The position numbers were made by a program, and so were the translations under genes. 64,000 nt of DNA from Bacilli bacterium. Lineage in GTDB: Bacteria > Bacillota_I > Bacilli_A > RF39 > UBA660. Positions 43,245 through 48,401 of this stretch are shown piece by piece. The notes below the pieces were generated by a model. That model saw nothing but the letters and a program-made list of their open reading frames with translations, was not told the DNA's origin and made no database searches. How positions within the stretch are numbered: the first letter of the stretch is position 1; each line of letters opens with the position of its first letter. The stretch is from assembly GCA_017511375.1 (NCBI GenBank), contig JAFWKJ010000012.1, positions 62,001 to 126,000 on the forward strand. Reading direction: 5' to 3'.

Positions 43245-43277
43245 GAAAAAAGCAGCTTTATCTAGAAAAGCCTGCTT
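43245..43277 (-). terminator. Terminator after small lipoprotein gene
   Basis: A stem with a one-base bulge (AGCAG-CTTT / AAAG-C-CTGCT) is followed by a T run on the minus strand and overlaps the gene end. Confidence 0.65.
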
Positions 43278-43503
43278 CATTTGTAGTTTCATCAGAATCA
43301 ATGACATCTTCTAATTCATAATGTTCTAATAAAAAACGTGATTTTTCAAAGGAATCTTCAAAAGATGAAAAATTACTTCGATATATTTCTTGTGTCTTTT
43401 TTTCAGCTACTTTTTCATTATGACAAGAAACAATAGATACAGTAAGTGCCATTGCTAATATAGGTACCCAACATACCTTTAAGTTTTTCACTTCTTTTCT
43501 CAT
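43258..43503 (-). CDS. Small hypothetical lipoprotein
   Basis: This 81-residue protein has a basic start, a hydrophobic stretch (about 11-26) and a Cys in VSIVSCHNEK that could be a lipobox, although Ile at -3 is less usual than Leu. The rest is acidic and helical. No family is recognised. It follows the DUF4176-containing unit but is separated from it by a terminator. Confidence 0.5.
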   Translation of the reverse strand: MRKEVKNLKVCWVPILAMALTVSIVSCHNEKVAEKKTQEIYRSNFSSFEDSFEKSRFLLEHYELEDVIDSDETTNEAGFSR

Positions 43504-43553: not shown

Positions 43554-43584
43554 TCAAGAAAAAAAGAGTATTGCTACTCTTTAT
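43554..43584 (-). terminator. Terminator of the type VII-like operon
   Basis: An AAAGAGTA / TACTCTTT stem with a 4-nt loop is followed by a T run on the minus strand, after the DUF4176 gene. Confidence 0.75.
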
Positions 43585-43910
43585 TCTGTTTCTCCATTTA
43601 AAACGGTTTTAACAAACTCTTCTTTTACATCATCACCGAATTTACGCATAGCATCATTTAAAAGTTTAAAATCATTATCTTCTTCAAAACCTAAGAAAAC
43701 GATTTTTTCAATATCTGAATGATTAAAACCAATGGCTGTATTACTATCCATAACTCCTTCTGGAAATTGACATCCACCATAGTCATACATTTTTTTATCT
43801 TTGTCATTTCCATTAGAGAATATTAGGTAAGAAGTAATCATTACATTTTTATTTCCACCTTTTAATAATACAACGGTTCCTATAGGCAAATATTTTTCTT
43901 TATCTATCAT
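43581..43910 (-). CDS. DUF4176-like protein (type VII secretion-associated)
   Basis: The 109-residue protein matches the DUF4176 layout: PIGTVVLLKGGNKNVMITSYL near the start, then YDYGGCQFPEGVM, GFNHSDIEKIVFLGFEEDND. DUF4176 proteins usually accompany LXG/WXG100 type VII secretion genes in Firmicutes. It begins 14 bases after the large repeat-rich gene, in the same unit as the WXG100-like gene. The biochemical role is not known. Confidence 0.75.
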   Translation of the reverse strand: MIDKEKYLPIGTVVLLKGGNKNVMITSYLIFSNGNDKDKKMYDYGGCQFPEGVMDSNTAIGFNHSDIEKIVFLGFEEDNDFKLLNDAMRKFGDDVKEEFVKTVLNGETE

Positions 43911-43924
43911 TTTAAACTCCTCCT

Positions 43925-46900
43925 TTATACTCTTTCAACATTATCAAAATAATCGCTATCATCATCTTGTTCATCTTCTTCATCTAATTCATCAGCGTTT
44001 CGCTTTTTTCTCTTATTAGCAGCAACCGCTAATCCTGCAGCGCCAGCCGCAGCTCCGATAGCAGCAGGTACCGCATAATCTTTAAGTCCCTTTTTACCAA
44101 CCATAGTATTTGGAATGGCCGCATATTCAGAAACGGTTCCTCCGCCTCCTCCACCGGAAACATAAGTTGGTGAAGGTGATGGATCATAACTAGGTTGTGT
44201 ATCAGGTTCCGTAACTGGCTCCGTTTCAGGTTCTGTCACAGGCTCAGTTTCTGGCTCAGTTTCTGGCTCAGTTTCAGGTTCCGTTTCAGGCTCTGTTTCA
44301 GGCTCTGTTTCAGGTTCAGTTTCTGGCTCAGTCTCAGGCTCTGTTTCAGGTTCAGTAATTGGTTCCGTTGGAGCCTCCGTTGGGGCAGCCGTTGTTGGTG
44401 GCTCAGTTGGTGGTTCCGTTGGAGCCTCCGTTGGGGTAGCCGTTGTTGGTGGCTCAGTTGGTGGTTCCGTTGGAGCCTCCGTTGGGGTAGCCGTTGTTGG
44501 CTGTGCCGTCGTTGGTGCAGCCGTTGTTGGCTGTGCCGTCGTTGGTGCAGTTGTATTTGGCTGTGCTGATGATGGAGTAGTTGTTGGCTGTGCCGTCGTT
44601 GGTGCAGCCGTTGTTGGTTGCGCCGTCGTTGGTGCAACAGTTTCAATTGCTTCCGTAGGTGGTACAGGATCAAAATGAGGTTCCGTCATTGGAACAGTTC
44701 CAGGATCCGTAATTGGTGGATGTGGAACAACCACTTTATCTACTGGTAAAGCAGGGGTTTCAACTGGAATATTCTCAACTGGCACAACATCTTGCACAGG
44801 TGGTGCATATACCGGTTGTGGAAGACCATCCGAACCTGTAACAACTAAGTCACCTACTCCATTTCCAACCGGAATCAAATCCGTAACACCTTTATTTACT
44901 GGAACTAAATCTGTAATTCCTTTTTCTATCGCAACTAAATCTACAACACCTTTTTCTACTGGTACTAAATCCGTAATACCTTTTTCTACTGCAACTAAAT
45001 CTTTAGTTCCAACCTTTGAAAGGGCCGTAGTCATATCATCCGCAGAGGATCCTATTAATGACTCTGCATGCTCAGGAAGTAATGGAACATCATTTCCTAC
45101 AGCAGAGGCTCCTGCTTTAGGTAAACCTTCACTTGCAATAAGCCCGGTTTCTCCTTTTGTAATAAGTCCAGTTTCTCCTTTTGGAAGAAGACCAGAAACC
45201 GCATCATCCACAGAAGATCCAACAAGTGACTCTGCGTGTTCTGTAAGAAGATTTCCAGCTGATGTTGTTCCAGCTTCTGCTCCTGCAGAGACTCCCGAAG
45301 AAGTACCTTTAGAAAGACTAGATAGATTAGCCTGTTGCTTTCTATAAAGCATATCATCCGCTACGTCAGCAAATCTATTAGCTGCCGCGTCTGTTCCTTT
45401 TCCACCCACTAAAGCAGCATCTCCAATCACATCATCCGCAGCCCCACTAACTGATCGAGCAACATTTCCTCCTGCAGGGTTAGGTACTGCTGCAGCTTCT
45501 CCTAATATGTCATCTCCCACACTACTTAACGATTGAGCAGCATCTCCTACCGTTGCATTTGGATGGAATGCTTTGGCAATACTTCTATACGCTTCCGTAA
45601 CAGCGCCATATTCGGCACTACCAGAACCATATGTATTTTTAATAGAATTCCTTAGAGAAGAAGCAGCATTCATAGCGTCATCGGCAGACATCGTACCATT
45701 TTTCGCAGCGGCCAAAATATCATCCATTTCTTGACTAAGCTCACGAGCCGTCTTACCAGCAACTCCTCCAACAGAAGAACTTGTTCCTGTACCTGCTCCA
45801 GCAGCACTTCCTTCTGCACTTCGAGCAGCTCCTCCTATAAAGTCATCTCCCATTCCTCCAACAGCATCAGCTGCATTAGCAGCCATAGTATCAGGATGGA
45901 ATGATTTAGCAATATTTCTATATATATCTTTAACAGCGCCATATTCAGCACTATTTCTTCCAAATGTATTAGCAATATCATCGCTTAAACTATTAGCAGC
46001 ACGAATGGCATCATCGGCAGACATCGTACCATTTTTCGCAGCATTGAAAATATCATCCATTTGCTGACCAAGTTCTTGGGCAGATTTTCCAGCAACACTA
46101 CCAGTTCCATTTCCAACGCTTCCTCCAGATGTCTTACCGGCAGCTCCTCCTGCAGAACCTGAAGCTCCGCCACTGCCACCACTAGCCATATCATCAATAC
46201 CACCAGCAAGATCATCTACAAAATCATCCGCAACACCTGCGGCAGTTCCTGTACCAGCCTTGGCAGCATTATATTTTCCTACTCCCCAACTAATAGCTTT
46301 ATTTAAACCAAATACTAAGGCAGCAGAAAGAGCGGCATTTCCAACACCTTTCTTAAAGGCTTGATCATAATCCATTCCAATTCCAAGTCCAGCTTGCATG
46401 GTTCCACCCATAGCACCTACAGCAGCTTCTCCCATTCCTAAACCAAGAGAACCAAGAGCAGCTCTACCTCCTGCTTTAAAGGCAGACCATCCAGCAGCTT
46501 GTGTAGCAGCTGTCGTTCCCATACCTGTGGCACTTCCTACTAATCCACCACCCACATAGGAGATGGCAGCATAACCCAGTGCCGTTCCAATTCCCTTGGT
46601 AAGTCGCGCTAAGCCACCCGACTCTTTCATATAACTAGCCTTCGTCATATTAGAACCAAATTCAGTATTGTAATAAAAATCGTGGAAAGCATCTCCTACA
46701 TAATCTTTTTTTACAAATTCACCTACTTTGGCTTTAAACTTATCAGCTCCGAAAAGGCCTCCAATTGCTCCTAAAAGAGAAGCAAATCCATCGACCAATT
46801 GTTCACCAGCCGTAAAAAATCCTTCAAATAGTTTAGATCCAACCATTCCAATTGTTCCAAACAATCTTTCAAAGAATCCCATTTTAGAAACATCTTCATT

Positions 46901-47152
46901 ATATTTCATGATTGCTTCTGCTTTTTCTTGAATCAAAGCAATCATATTGTCAACTTCTCGAACACAAGCATCTGATAGAGCAGGACCAGTCTTTAAATCA
47001 CCTGTATCAACATATTTTGCTCCTCTAGCACCCACAATTAGACTTAGTCCAGAGGACACACCAGAATCAACATTAGAAAGGGTATCTCTTGCACCTTTTA
47101 ATTTGCTGATTACGTCTGCAACTTTATTTTCATCAAAATCAAGTCTTGCCAT
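43925..47152 (-). CDS. Large repeat-rich protein with WXG-like N-terminus and Pro-Thr stalk
   Basis: The 1075-residue protein has no signal peptide. The first about 95 residues form a helical hairpin like those of type VII substrates. A glycine/alanine-rich membrane-active-looking part follows (about 180-330). Two copies of a module of about 90 residues (about 352-440 and 462-550) share GTMSADDA and Y..IAK.FHP, the first with HPD. Then come five 10-residue repeats (DLVPVEKGIT, about 715-770), and Pro/Thr repeats (about 830-990: PTTAQ, PTEPP, TEPE). Near the end are IPNTM, a hydrophobic Ala/Gly segment (about 1028-1045), KRKKR and an acidic tail. It may be a secreted or surface fibre; function is unknown. 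Confidence 0.75.
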   Translation of the reverse strand: MARLDFDENKVADVISKLKGARDTLSNVDSGVSSGLSLIVGARGAKYVDTGDLKTGPALSDACVREVDNMIALIQEKAEAIMKYNEDVSKMGFFERLFGTIGMVGSKLFEGFFTAGEQLVDGFASLLGAIGGLFGADKFKAKVGEFVKKDYVGDAFHDFYYNTEFGSNMTKASYMKESGGLARLTKGIGTALGYAAISYVGGGLVGSATGMGTTAATQAAGWSAFKAGGRAALGSLGLGMGEAAVGAMGGTMQAGLGIGMDYDQAFKKGVGNAALSAALVFGLNKAISWGVGKYNAAKAGTGTAAGVADDFVDDLAGGIDDMASGGSGGASGSAGGAAGKTSGGSVGNGTGSVAGKSAQELGQQMDDIFNAAKNGTMSADDAIRAANSLSDDIANTFGRNSAEYGAVKDIYRNIAKSFHPDTMAANAADAVGGMGDDFIGGAARSAEGSAAGAGTGTSSSVGGVAGKTARELSQEMDDILAAAKNGTMSADDAMNAASSLRNSIKNTYGSGSAEYGAVTEAYRSIAKAFHPNATVGDAAQSLSSVGDDILGEAAAVPNPAGGNVARSVSGAADDVIGDAALVGGKGTDAAANRFADVADDMLYRKQQANLSSLSKGTSSGVSAGAEAGTTSAGNLLTEHAESLVGSSVDDAVSGLLPKGETGLITKGETGLIASEGLPKAGASAVGNDVPLLPEHAESLIGSSADDMTTALSKVGTKDLVAVEKGITDLVPVEKGVVDLVAIEKGITDLVPVNKGVTDLIPVGNGVGDLVVTGSDGLPQPVYAPPVQDVVPVENIPVETPALPVDKVVVPHPPITDPGTVPMTEPHFDPVPPTEAIETVAPTTAQPTTAAPTTAQPTTTPSSAQPNTTAPTTAQPTTAAPTTAQPTTATPTEAPTEPPTEPPTTATPTEAPTEPPTEPPTTAAPTEAPTEPITEPETEPETEPETEPETEPETEPETEPETEPETEPETEPVTEPETEPVTEPDTQPSYDPSPSPTYVSGGGGGGTVSEYAAIPNTMVGKKGLKDYAVPAAIGAAAGAAGLAVAANKRKKRNADELDEEDEQDDDSDYFDNVERV
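44202..44251 (-). repeat. 50-bp segment identical to 18065-18114
   Basis: Encodes TEPV/TEPE in the same frame as the zinc-ribbon gene. See the entry at 18065. Confidence 0.9.
44361..44500 (-). repeat. 51-bp tandem units encoding PTEPP-type repeats
   Basis: Units starting at 44361, 44412 and 44463 repeat with a period of 51 bases and only single-base differences; the third is partial. Confidence 0.8.
44843..45005 (-). repeat. 30-bp tandem repeats encoding DLVPVEKGIT
   Basis: About five units of 30 bases encode a 10-residue repeat (variants of DLVPVEKGIT) between the Ser/Ala-rich part and the Pro-rich part of the large protein. Confidence 0.75.
45678..45709 (-). repeat. 32-bp identity between the two internal modules (copy 2)
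   Basis: The 32 bases here are identical to 46011-46042, which lies at the same point in the first module. This shows a recent internal duplication of the about 90-residue module. Confidence 0.85.
46011..46042 (-). repeat. 32-bp identity between the two internal modules (copy 1)
   Basis: Matches 45678-45709 exactly and encodes the NGTMSADDA part of the module. Confidence 0.85.
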
Positions 47153-47163
47153 CTTATCCCCTC

Positions 47164-47505
47164 CTAATTATTTTTCGCAGCTTGTTCTTGTGCTAATCTT
47201 TGATAATAAGCATTTAATTCACGAACTTGTGCATTATAAACATTAACTGCTTGAACATTTACCTCGTTTACACGACTAGCATATTCGTTGGCAACATTCG
47301 CAATTTGTTGTGCAAGCTCATAAAGAACAGGCTGCATTGTCTGCCCATCTACATTTAAAGCTTTTTTATCGCACATTTCAGCTGCTTCCATTACTTGTTT
47401 GGCTGCTTGCATAAAATAATCCAAAGAATCCATATATGCAGAACATCCATTTCTAATTGTGTTATAGTCTATTAGTTGAGACTCACTTGTAATTCCATAA
47501 GCCAT
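47164..47505 (-). CDS. WXG100-like small helical protein
   Basis: The start is the ATG at 47505 (MAYGITSESQLIDY), 7 bases after GAGGG; an ATG six codons earlier has no ribosome-binding site. The 113-residue protein is made of two long helices with a turn near CDKKALNVDG, where a WXG motif would lie; the Trp is absent. Size, helical hairpin shape and its position before a large WXG-like protein and a DUF4176 gene suggest an ESAT-6-like partner of a type VII system. Family membership is inferred from architecture. Confidence 0.6.
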   Translation of the reverse strand: MAYGITSESQLIDYNTIRNGCSAYMDSLDYFMQAAKQVMEAAEMCDKKALNVDGQTMQPVLYELAQQIANVANEYASRVNEVNVQAVNVYNAQVRELNAYYQRLAQEQAAKNN

Positions 47506-47532: not shown

Positions 47533-47560
47533 ATCATATTTATTTTTTCATATTTGACAA
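47533..47560 (-). promoter_or_regulatory. Sigma-A-type promoter for the type VII-like operon
   Basis: On the minus strand, TTGTCA, a 16-base spacer and TATGAT lie between the sortase terminator and the WXG100-like gene, so 47505-43581 can be transcribed as its own unit. Confidence 0.6.
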
Positions 47561-47597
47561 AAAAAAGCAAGGGTTTCTATCGAAAAAACCTTGCATT
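47556..47597 (-). terminator. Terminator after sortase gene
   Basis: A GCAAGGGTTT / AAAACCTTGC stem with one mismatch is followed by a T run on the minus strand. Confidence 0.75.
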
Positions 47598-47600
47598 TTA

Positions 47601-48401
47601 CTATTTTTTTTCTTTACAAATTACTAGCAAATAAGATCCCATTGGATCATAATGACAGACCTGCAAAACAAGCAATCGATCACTGGCTGTAAAACTAGCA
47701 TTATCACCCACATACAAAGCACCACTTAAAAGGCGATTAATATGTTGCAAAAAATCCATATCATTGGAAAAAACCAACTTCATATGTTCATTACTTCCAT
47801 CTGTCAATATTTTAATCGCAACCACTTCATAGTTAATTTGTCTTTCATCAATACTCAAATAAACATCTTTATAATTATCAAAAATGTTTTTATCCACATA
47901 AGCTTCTAAGTTTGTAAAAGGTAATTGACTATAAAATTCCTCTCGCTGCGTATTATGACCATATATATTAACTTGTCGATCTGTATTTAAATTTTGATTT
48001 CGATAATCAAAGAAAGGTACTCCTAAACCATCCCATTGATGATATAAATTATAATTCAAATAGTATTCATTATCAGTAGCTCTTACAATCATCGCATTAA
48101 TATTGAGATTCGGTATTTCCAAGCGACCCATAATCTCATAATTTCCATATTGAGCACGAAAATCAGGTAACTGATTTACATAATTACTGACATCAATTTT
48201 ATTTTCATCTTTATCTTTATAACCAGACTTTTTCTTTTCTTCAATCAGCTTATTAACACTAGGAATCCCTGGTTTCTTTATATAATGATCATATACAAAA
48301 TAACCACCAACACAAAGAATAATAGGCATAACAATAATAAGGAAATCTTTAAGAAATTGATTTCTTCTACTTCGTATAAACTTATTGTTTTTTCTAGCCA
48401 C
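47601..48401 (-). CDS. Class B-like sortase, catalytic Arg not evident
   Basis: The 266-residue protein has a basic N-terminus, one membrane anchor (about 19-36) and a sortase beta barrel (MGRLEIPNLNINAMIV starts the core). The catalytic His is in VNIYGHN (residue 149) and the Cys in LLVLQVCHYDP (residue 249). In known sortases an Arg stands just before the last strand; here the corresponding segment is MGSYLLVICKEKK, so the Arg seems replaced by Tyr or Ser. Length and the helix before the active site fit class B. The likely substrates in this window end in PxT motifs. It is followed by the WXG100-like operon and preceded by PBP2. Confidence 0.8.
   Translation of the reverse strand: MARKNNKFIRSRRNQFLKDFLIIVMPIILCVGGYFVYDHYIKKPGIPSVNKLIEEKKKSGYKDKDENKIDVSNYVNQLPDFRAQYGNYEIMGRLEIPNLNINAMIVRATDNEYYLNYNLYHQWDGLGVPFFDYRNQNLNTDRQVNIYGHNTQREEFYSQLPFTNLEAYVDKNIFDNYKDVYLSIDERQINYEVVAIKILTDGSNEHMKLVFSNDMDFLQHINRLLSGALYVGDNASFTASDRLLVLQVCHYDPMGSYLLVICKEKK

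What the first reader, a model, noticed from the sequence alone, without database searches (positions are those of the whole stretch)
43581..47505. Type VII-like operon without a visible ATPase, encoding a 1075-residue multi-repeat protein
A WXG100-like protein lacking Trp, a large protein with WXG-like N-terminus but also a C-terminal PxT plus hydrophobic tail, and a DUF4176 protein form a unit with its own promoter and terminator. Known type VII substrates do not usually carry sortase-like tails, so export followed by wall anchoring would be a new combination. No EssC-type ATPase is in the window; the FtsK here is the division translocase.
Basis: partly seen in the sequence, partly recalled or inferred. 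Interest (0 to 1): 0.7.

Follow-up and report, generated by a model that had tools for sequence, protein, structure and literature searches.

The report
Sortase-linked type VII surface-protein cassette
An uncultured gut-type Bacilli bacterium carries a small gene cassette that appears to export a large protein through the type VII secretion machine and then fix it to the cell surface with a dedicated sortase, a pairing of two secretion steps that I found no report of.

Summary
Three co-directional genes (Trp-less helical hairpin; 1075-aa repeat protein; DUF4176) form a unit with its own promoter-like site and terminators. (1) The genome does encode a type VII ATPase, on another contig: EssC (TIGR03928, 975 bits against a cut-off of 778). 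(2) The gene immediately upstream is a class B sortase. The order srtB–hairpin–large protein–DUF4176 recurs at three different chromosomal sites in related Bacilli. The large protein's tail carries IPxT before a hydrophobic stretch in 13 of 13 aligned tails; complete paralogues of the second type, without a proper IPxT, have no srtB beside them. No IPxT-tailed protein whose N-terminus could be read has a Sec signal peptide. DUF4176 proteins are now known as Ltc chaperones of type VII LXG toxins. Best reading: a type VIIb substrate cassette whose product is anchored at the surface, probably by the linked sortase. Neither export nor anchoring is shown. The main warning: all 25 orthologous sortases have Tyr where known sortases have the catalytic Arg, and the acidic tail is longer than usual. 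EsaA and EssB were not detected. Novelty: new variant of a known kind.

The parts
47601..48401 (-). srtB: class B sortase-like protein, 266 aa, N-terminal membrane anchor; keeps His (YGHN) and Cys (LQVC) but has Tyr at the position of the catalytic Arg
   Evidence: TIGR03064 E 8e-25 but 87.5 bits, below its equivalog cut-off of 153.75; PDB SrtB matches and alignment with 5b23; Tyr at Cys+8 in 25 of 25 orthologues
47559..47594 (-). terminator-like hairpin between srtB and the unit (separate transcripts likely)
   Evidence: -11.6 kcal/mol, z -3.18, no shuffle folds as well
47533..47560 (-). promoter-like site TTGTCA-16-TATGAT
   Evidence: 10 of 12 matches; consensus match only
47164..47505 (-). 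small WXG100/Lap-like helical hairpin protein, 113 aa, no Trp
   Evidence: AF2 pLDDT 90.9, two helices 14-52 and 58-112; conserved in 15 genomes; Pfam WXG100 matched by 1 of 15 orthologues only
43925..47152 (-). large protein, 1075 aa: putative type VIIb substrate
46877..47152 (-). residues 1-92: N-terminal helical hairpin of the large protein (WXG/LXG-like arrangement)
   Evidence: AF2 helices 8-41 and 51-89, pLDDT about 67-81; EsxA 2vrz among matches, Z 7.9, 92 residues, 3.0 A; not diagnostic alone
46253..46876 (-). residues 93-300: conserved amphipathic/Gly-Ala-rich domain shared with paralogues and with toxin-like proteins of other genera
   Evidence: alignments; matches in G059, G100, G131
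44198..44636 (-). Pro/Thr/Glu-rich tandem repeat linker (stalk)
   Evidence: tandem repeats finder
44105..44116 (-). IPNT (residues 1013-1016), putative sortase recognition motif
   Evidence: I, P and T invariant in 13 of 13 tails
44018..44074 (-). Ala/Gly-rich hydrophobic segment (residues 1027-1045), mean Kyte-Doolittle 1.77
43928..44017 (-). NKRKKR followed by acidic C-terminal tail, 30 residues in all
43581..43910 (-). DUF4176 protein (Ltc-type chaperone family), 109 aa
   Evidence: PF13780 E 1.7e-24; function of family from PMC13355648
43558..43582 (-). terminator-like hairpin after the DUF4176 gene
   Evidence: -7.1 kcal/mol, z -1.9

Best explanation
The unit is a type VIIb secretion substrate cassette coupled to a sortase. 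The small hairpin protein pairs with the N-terminal helical region of the 1075-aa protein and targets it to EssC, which is encoded elsewhere in the genome. The DUF4176 (Ltc) protein keeps the long disordered protein export-competent and stays in the cytoplasm. The large protein crosses the membrane without a Sec signal. Its C-terminal Ala/Gly-rich segment and charged tail stop in the membrane, and the IPNT motif is presented outside to the sortase encoded next door, which would cleave after Thr and attach the protein to the envelope. The Pro/Thr/Glu repeats would be a stalk that carries the N-terminal part through the wall. Shown here: gene order, conservation, family matches, EssC in the genome, IPxT invariance, srtB linkage, no recognisable Sec signal. 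Inferred: complex formation, export, topology, cleavage, wall attachment.
For: EssC present and found in 38 of 39 genomes of the genus. DUF4176, a family reported as cytoplasmic chaperones of LXG toxins that bind a disordered region (PMC13355648). Hairpin partner. Helical N-terminus. IPxT in 13 of 13 tails, about 7-14 residues before the hydrophobic segment (the printed L063 spacing of 23 is measured from an earlier overlapping IP.T). IPNTG is an established sorting motif, that of B. cereus BcpB (PMC3297441). The srtB-small-large order recurs at PBP2/EFP-FtsK, Pgi/RluD-AsnS and DnaJ-ThyA-DfrA sites. Among large-protein loci with a readable tail my hand tally was about: IPxT with srtB adjacent 11, IPxT without 3, no IPxT with srtB 2 (both truncated homologues), neither about 22; Fisher p 2e-5, but the loci are related, so this is descriptive. 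No Sec signal peptide seen on any IPxT-tailed protein whose N-terminus could be read. KR count after the hydrophobic segment is at least that before it in 11 of 13 tails.
Against: The sortase has Tyr at the catalytic Arg position in all 25 orthologues, and mutants of that Arg are inactive in a studied sortase (PMC13257024). The tail after the hydrophobic segment is 13-33 residues long and acidic, longer than the classic 5-10. The hydrophobic segment is Ala/Gly-rich and weak. A terminator separates srtB from the unit, so they are probably not one transcript. Seven genomes keep srtB at these sites with no cassette visible beside it, and two have the large protein away from srtB. Pfam WXG100 and LXG models do not match the window proteins. 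EsaA and EssB models gave no match over cut-off in five genomes.
Confidence: 0.55

Rival explanations
1. The large protein is exported by the type VII system but is only a membrane-anchored (stop-transfer) surface protein; the linked sortase is an inactive or differently acting relative, and IPxT is a linker feature or a binding site.
For: Paralogues on contigs C3 and C1 and many relatives have a similar hydrophobic segment and acidic tail without a proper sortase motif and without srtB nearby. Sortase lacks the catalytic Arg. Long acidic tail.
Against: IPxT is invariant while the surrounding linker is not, and IPxT tracks with srtB adjacency. The Cys and His of the sortase are invariant in 25 of 25 orthologues.
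Confidence: 0.25
2. The large protein is a polymorphic-toxin-like LXG effector (contact-dependent antagonist) tethered to the producer's surface; the variable middle region would be the effector part.
For: N-terminal domain shared with proteins of other genera whose C-termini look enzymatic (P0018 with a weak DUF3626 match; L177), also next to DUF4176. Length varies widely between orthologues. Gly-rich hydrophobic domain recalls membrane-acting LXG toxins (my knowledge).
Against: No toxin domain found in P0001. No clear immunity gene in the unit. Much of the middle is low-complexity repeat.
Confidence: 0.12
3. The unit is not exported: it is an intracellular, C-tail-anchored membrane scaffold, and the resemblance to type VII substrates is a common helical arrangement.
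For: Helical hairpins are common and fold matches are not specific. WXG100 and LXG models do not match.
Against: DUF4176 partner, hairpin partner and EssC. Pro/Thr/Glu stalks and a conserved sorting-like motif make little sense inside the cell. More basic residues follow the hydrophobic segment.
Confidence: 0.08

Closest known systems
Type VIIb LXG toxin modules (Lap targeting proteins + LXG protein + Ltc/DUF4176), e.g. S. intermedius TelA
   Same: Small helical partner encoded next to a large protein with a helical N-terminus, with a DUF4176/Ltc gene; EssC in the genome
   Different: Pfam LXG not matched by the window protein; one partner instead of two Lap genes; DUF4176 downstream; stalk plus IPxT/hydrophobic tail instead of a recognised toxin domain; class B sortase gene attached
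Sortase-anchored surface proteins with LPXTG-type signals (S. aureus surface proteins; B. cereus BcpB with IPNTG)
   Same: IPxT(G) motif, hydrophobic segment, basic residues; sortase gene next door
   Different: No Sec signal peptide found; type VII-like N-terminus; longer acidic tail; linked sortase lacks the catalytic Arg
Class B sortases (C. difficile, C. perfringens, B. anthracis SrtB structures)
   Same: Sequence match over the catalytic domain, conserved His and Cys
   Different: Tyr in place of the catalytic Arg in 25 of 25 orthologues; score below the TIGR03064 equivalog cut-off
EssC/EsaB type VIIb machinery of S. aureus and B. subtilis
   Same: EssC with FHA domain and FtsK/SpoIIIE repeats followed by an 85-aa YukD/EsaB-size protein
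   Different: EsaA and EssB not detected over cut-off; substrate units scattered on other contigs

Membership tests
Type VIIb secretion system in this genome | EssC ATPase | tested here: met
   TIGR03928 974.9 bits, cut-off 778.4; C7:8535-13106
Type VIIb secretion system in this genome | EsaB/YukD ubiquitin-like protein | tested here: inconclusive
   85-aa protein right after essC, position and size fit, no curated match
Type VIIb secretion system in this genome | EsaA and EssB membrane proteins | tested here: inconclusive
   No match over cut-off in five genomes of the genus; one weak sub-threshold YukC match in G000, which is 70% complete
Type VIIb secretion system in this genome | WXG100 protein(s) | tested here: met
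   C17:39525, PF06013 37.2 bits over the cut-off of 27.3; TIGR03930 40.8 bits against cut-off 44.85
WXG100 (P0002) | match to PF06013 / TIGR03930 | tested here: not met
   No match for P0002; 1 of 15 orthologues at E 5e-4
WXG100 (P0002) | about 100-residue helical hairpin | tested here: met
   113 aa, AF2 pLDDT 90.9, two long helices; a generic fold
LXG proteins (P0001) | match to PF04740 | tested here: not met
   No match for P0001; 1 of 15 orthologous N-termini at E 0.0024
LXG-type module | DUF4176/Ltc chaperone gene next to the substrate | tested here: met
   PF13780 86.1 bits, cut-off 25; conserved downstream in most complete loci
Sortase substrate | LPXTG-like motif | tested here: met
   IPNT here; I, P, T invariant in 13 of 13; followed by G in several (IPQTG, IPNTG, IPETG)
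Sortase substrate | hydrophobic segment then short basic tail | tested here: inconclusive
   Segment and KRKKR present, but followed by an acidic stretch; 30 residues in all
Sortase substrate | covalent linkage to the cell wall | not testable with these tools
   needs experiment
Class B sortase (P0004) | sortase B domain with His and Cys | tested here: met
Class B sortase (P0004) | catalytic Arg after the Cys | tested here: not met
   Tyr at Cys+8 in 25 of 25; aligned to Arg of 5b23

The most novel reading that the evidence does not exclude
A two-step route to the Gram-positive surface: proteins exported without a Sec signal by the type VII machine are captured in the membrane by a C-terminal sorting signal and fixed to the envelope by a dedicated, cassette-borne sortase that works without the canonical catalytic arginine.
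Probability: 0.3. Interest if true: 0.85.

Novelty: new variant of a known kind. Interest (0 to 1): 0.62.

Why it matters
Sortase substrates are understood to reach the membrane's outer face through Sec, and type VIIb substrates are understood to be released or delivered to target cells. A cassette that joins the two would mean that type VII systems can also build the cell's own surface, and it would give a directly testable case of how a type VII substrate can be halted in the membrane. It would also bring attention to sortases without the catalytic arginine.

Tried and rejected
Single-protein scan of genome contigs with P0001 found no relative; a five-sequence profile found eight named rumen or gut Bacilli MAG loci. 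The idea that no EssC exists was rejected. The idea that other IPxT-tailed proteins use Sec was tested on the tail-sharing proteins whose N-termini could be read: none starts with a Sec signal peptide, most start with helical type VII-like regions. The Pfam DnaJ match (residues 402-426, 19 bits, below cut-off) covers only the helix-HPD part and I do not call it a J domain. Perilipin, AroM and similar hits of P0002 are helical noise below cut-off. Foldseek on P0002 gave nothing significant and VIA-align only generic helical hairpins, ESCRT-III, chemoreceptors and others; EsxA did not appear in its list, which does not exclude it. For the large protein's N-terminus EsxA (Z 7.9) and EsxEF (Z 6.8) appear among unrelated helical proteins with similar Z. 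The profile of the N-terminal domain hit only genomes of the same family in an even sample of 395 genomes of the class. Literature searches for type VII substrates with sorting signals found no report; the library holds open-licence papers only, and the key Ltc paper (PNAS 2025) could not be read directly.

Full report
WHAT IS THERE. A terminator-like hairpin with a U run lies just upstream, between the preceding gene and the unit (47594-47559, z -3.2), a weaker one follows the DUF4176 gene (z -1.9), and a promoter-like site precedes the first gene (such sites are frequent by chance). The 1075-aa protein has a helical N-terminus, a Gly/Ala-rich domain, a repeat-rich middle and a Pro/Thr/Glu repeat region, and ends in IPNT, ten residues, a 19-residue Ala/Gly-rich segment (mean hydropathy 1.77), NKRKKR and an acidic tail.

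The gene directly upstream, 47601-48401, is a class B sortase-like protein (TIGR03064 E 8e-25 but below the equivalog cut-off; best PDB matches all SrtB). His and Cys are present. The position that aligns to the catalytic Arg of the SrtB in 5b23 is Tyr, and this is so in 25 of 25 orthologues.

THE REST OF THE GENOME. The window lies on contig C10 of an 18-contig, 1.2 Mb, about 70% complete genome. EssC is on contig C7: 1523 aa, FHA domain, two FtsK/SpoIIIE stretches, TIGR03928 975 bits against a cut-off of 778, followed by an 85-aa protein of YukD/EsaB size and two small helical-looking proteins. EssC is found in 38 of 39 genomes of the genus. A WXG100 pair sits on C17. Two more large-protein units, each with DUF4176, lie at ends of contigs C3 and C1. 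EsaA and EssB models found nothing over their cut-offs in five genomes of the genus, so the machinery looks reduced, or too diverged for these models.

RELATIVES. Homologues of the large protein occur in most genomes of the genus and rarely outside it. Named matches are Bacilli MAGs, several from sheep, yak, goat and water-deer rumen or colon. In the best-conserved set the order is srtB - hairpin - large protein - DUF4176. It is found at three chromosomal sites: between a PBP2 gene and efp/ftsK (window and five relatives), between pgi/HAD and rluD/asnS (eight relatives), and between dnaJ-thyA-dfrA and a thioredoxin gene (two). Some of these loci are cut by contig ends, so the tail or the DUF4176 gene is not visible in all. 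Seven other genomes keep srtB alone at one of the first two sites (one of these contigs ends right after srtB); in one pair (L066 and L131) the sortases are nearly identical and only one genome has the cassette. In two genomes the large protein sits without srtB at the pgi/rluD site, while srtB with a hairpin and a short homologue sits at the PBP2/efp site. So the linkage is strong but not strict, and srtB may have other clients.

THE TAIL. In 13 aligned tails the I, P and T of IPxT are invariant, as are a Tyr before and two Gly within the hydrophobic segment. Several read IPQTG, IPNTG or IPETG. IPNTG is the sorting motif of B. cereus BcpB (PMC3297441). Paralogues of the second type, including the two on C3 and C1, have a different conserved hydrophobic segment (SVIPIAAGLS..AAAAGIGAKAY) and acidic end, no IPxT in the right place apart from IPTT/IPST in two that look like chance, and no srtB nearby. 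My tally of loci with readable tails was about 11 IPxT with adjacent srtB, 3 IPxT without, 2 without IPxT but with srtB, and 22 with neither; Fisher p 2e-5. The loci are related and the classes were counted by hand, so this is a description, not a test of independent events. Proteins that share only the tail were examined for Sec signal peptides where their N-termini could be read, and none was seen.

FOLDS. AF2 gives P0002 as a confident two-helix hairpin (pLDDT 90.9). The N-terminal 330 residues of P0001 are modelled with modest confidence (62.4), with helices 8-41 and 51-89. Structure comparison lists EsxA at Z 7.9 (92 residues, 3.0 A) and EsxEF at 6.8, among unrelated helical proteins of similar Z, so the fold is compatible with a WXG-type arrangement but does not prove it. 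Pfam WXG100 and LXG are matched by one orthologue each and not by the window proteins.

HOW IT MOST LIKELY WORKS. [quoted passage not shown] The unit has the same kinds of parts. I propose that P0002 pairs with the N-terminus of P0001 and targets it to EssC, that P0003 guards the long disordered region, and that the C-terminal segment halts in the membrane so that IPNT can be cut by the linked sortase and the protein fixed to the envelope. Every step after gene content is inference. The weakest is catalysis by a sortase without the Arg that is essential elsewhere (a class A example in PMC13257024). If the sortase is inactive, the protein would still be a type VII-exported, membrane-held surface protein, as the second-type paralogues suggest.

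NOVELTY. In the open-licence library I found no report of a type VII substrate with a sorting signal or a linked sortase. Each part is of a known kind; the combination is what appears new. I rate it a new variant of a known kind.

Noticed in passing
G000 sortases: L050, L051, L052, L053 and window 47601-48401: All five sortase-like proteins of this genome lack an Arg at the usual place after the catalytic Cys (e.g. LITCTNNDSTTQTIYIS, LITCTKDDETKQTIYVA, LTTCCPQKENCQLIIN, VVTCSRFFGDGKSYDLIV); class B relatives seen in other genera of the family also lack it. A lineage-wide change in sortase chemistry is possible.
   Followed up: partly
L070 7448-9982, L083 390-3296 and relatives: Second-type paralogues carry a conserved hydrophobic segment SVIPIAAGLSxAAAAGIGAKAY and, in many, a conserved extreme C-terminus (ARNxxELxxLQ), which suggests a function for the tail end.
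   Followed up: partly
L093 1608-3836 (P0018) and L177: In other genera of the family the N-terminal domain is joined to enzyme-like C-termini (weak DUF3626 match; transglutaminase-like look) next to two DUF4176 genes, i.e. toxin-like type VII effectors.
   Followed up: partly
L066 and L131: Two genomes with nearly identical srtB at the same site differ by presence or absence of the hairpin/large-protein unit between srtB and rluD, a recent gain or loss.
   Followed up: no
L015 8535-13991: Very compact EssC locus: EssC, an 85-aa YukD-size protein and two small proteins, no EsaA or EssB nearby.
   Followed up: partly
window 43258-43503: Small protein (81 aa) with a hydrophobic N-terminus and a Cys, conserved right after the unit in several relatives at the PBP2/efp site.
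   Followed up: no
window P0001 residues about 355-430 and 475-540: Two degenerate copies of a unit ending in YRxIAKxFHP[DN], with a sub-threshold DnaJ match covering the helix-HPD part.
   Followed up: no
L004 496-1122: WXG100 gene and a second WxG-containing small gene beside a FemX-like gene on contig C17, away from EssC.
   Followed up: no
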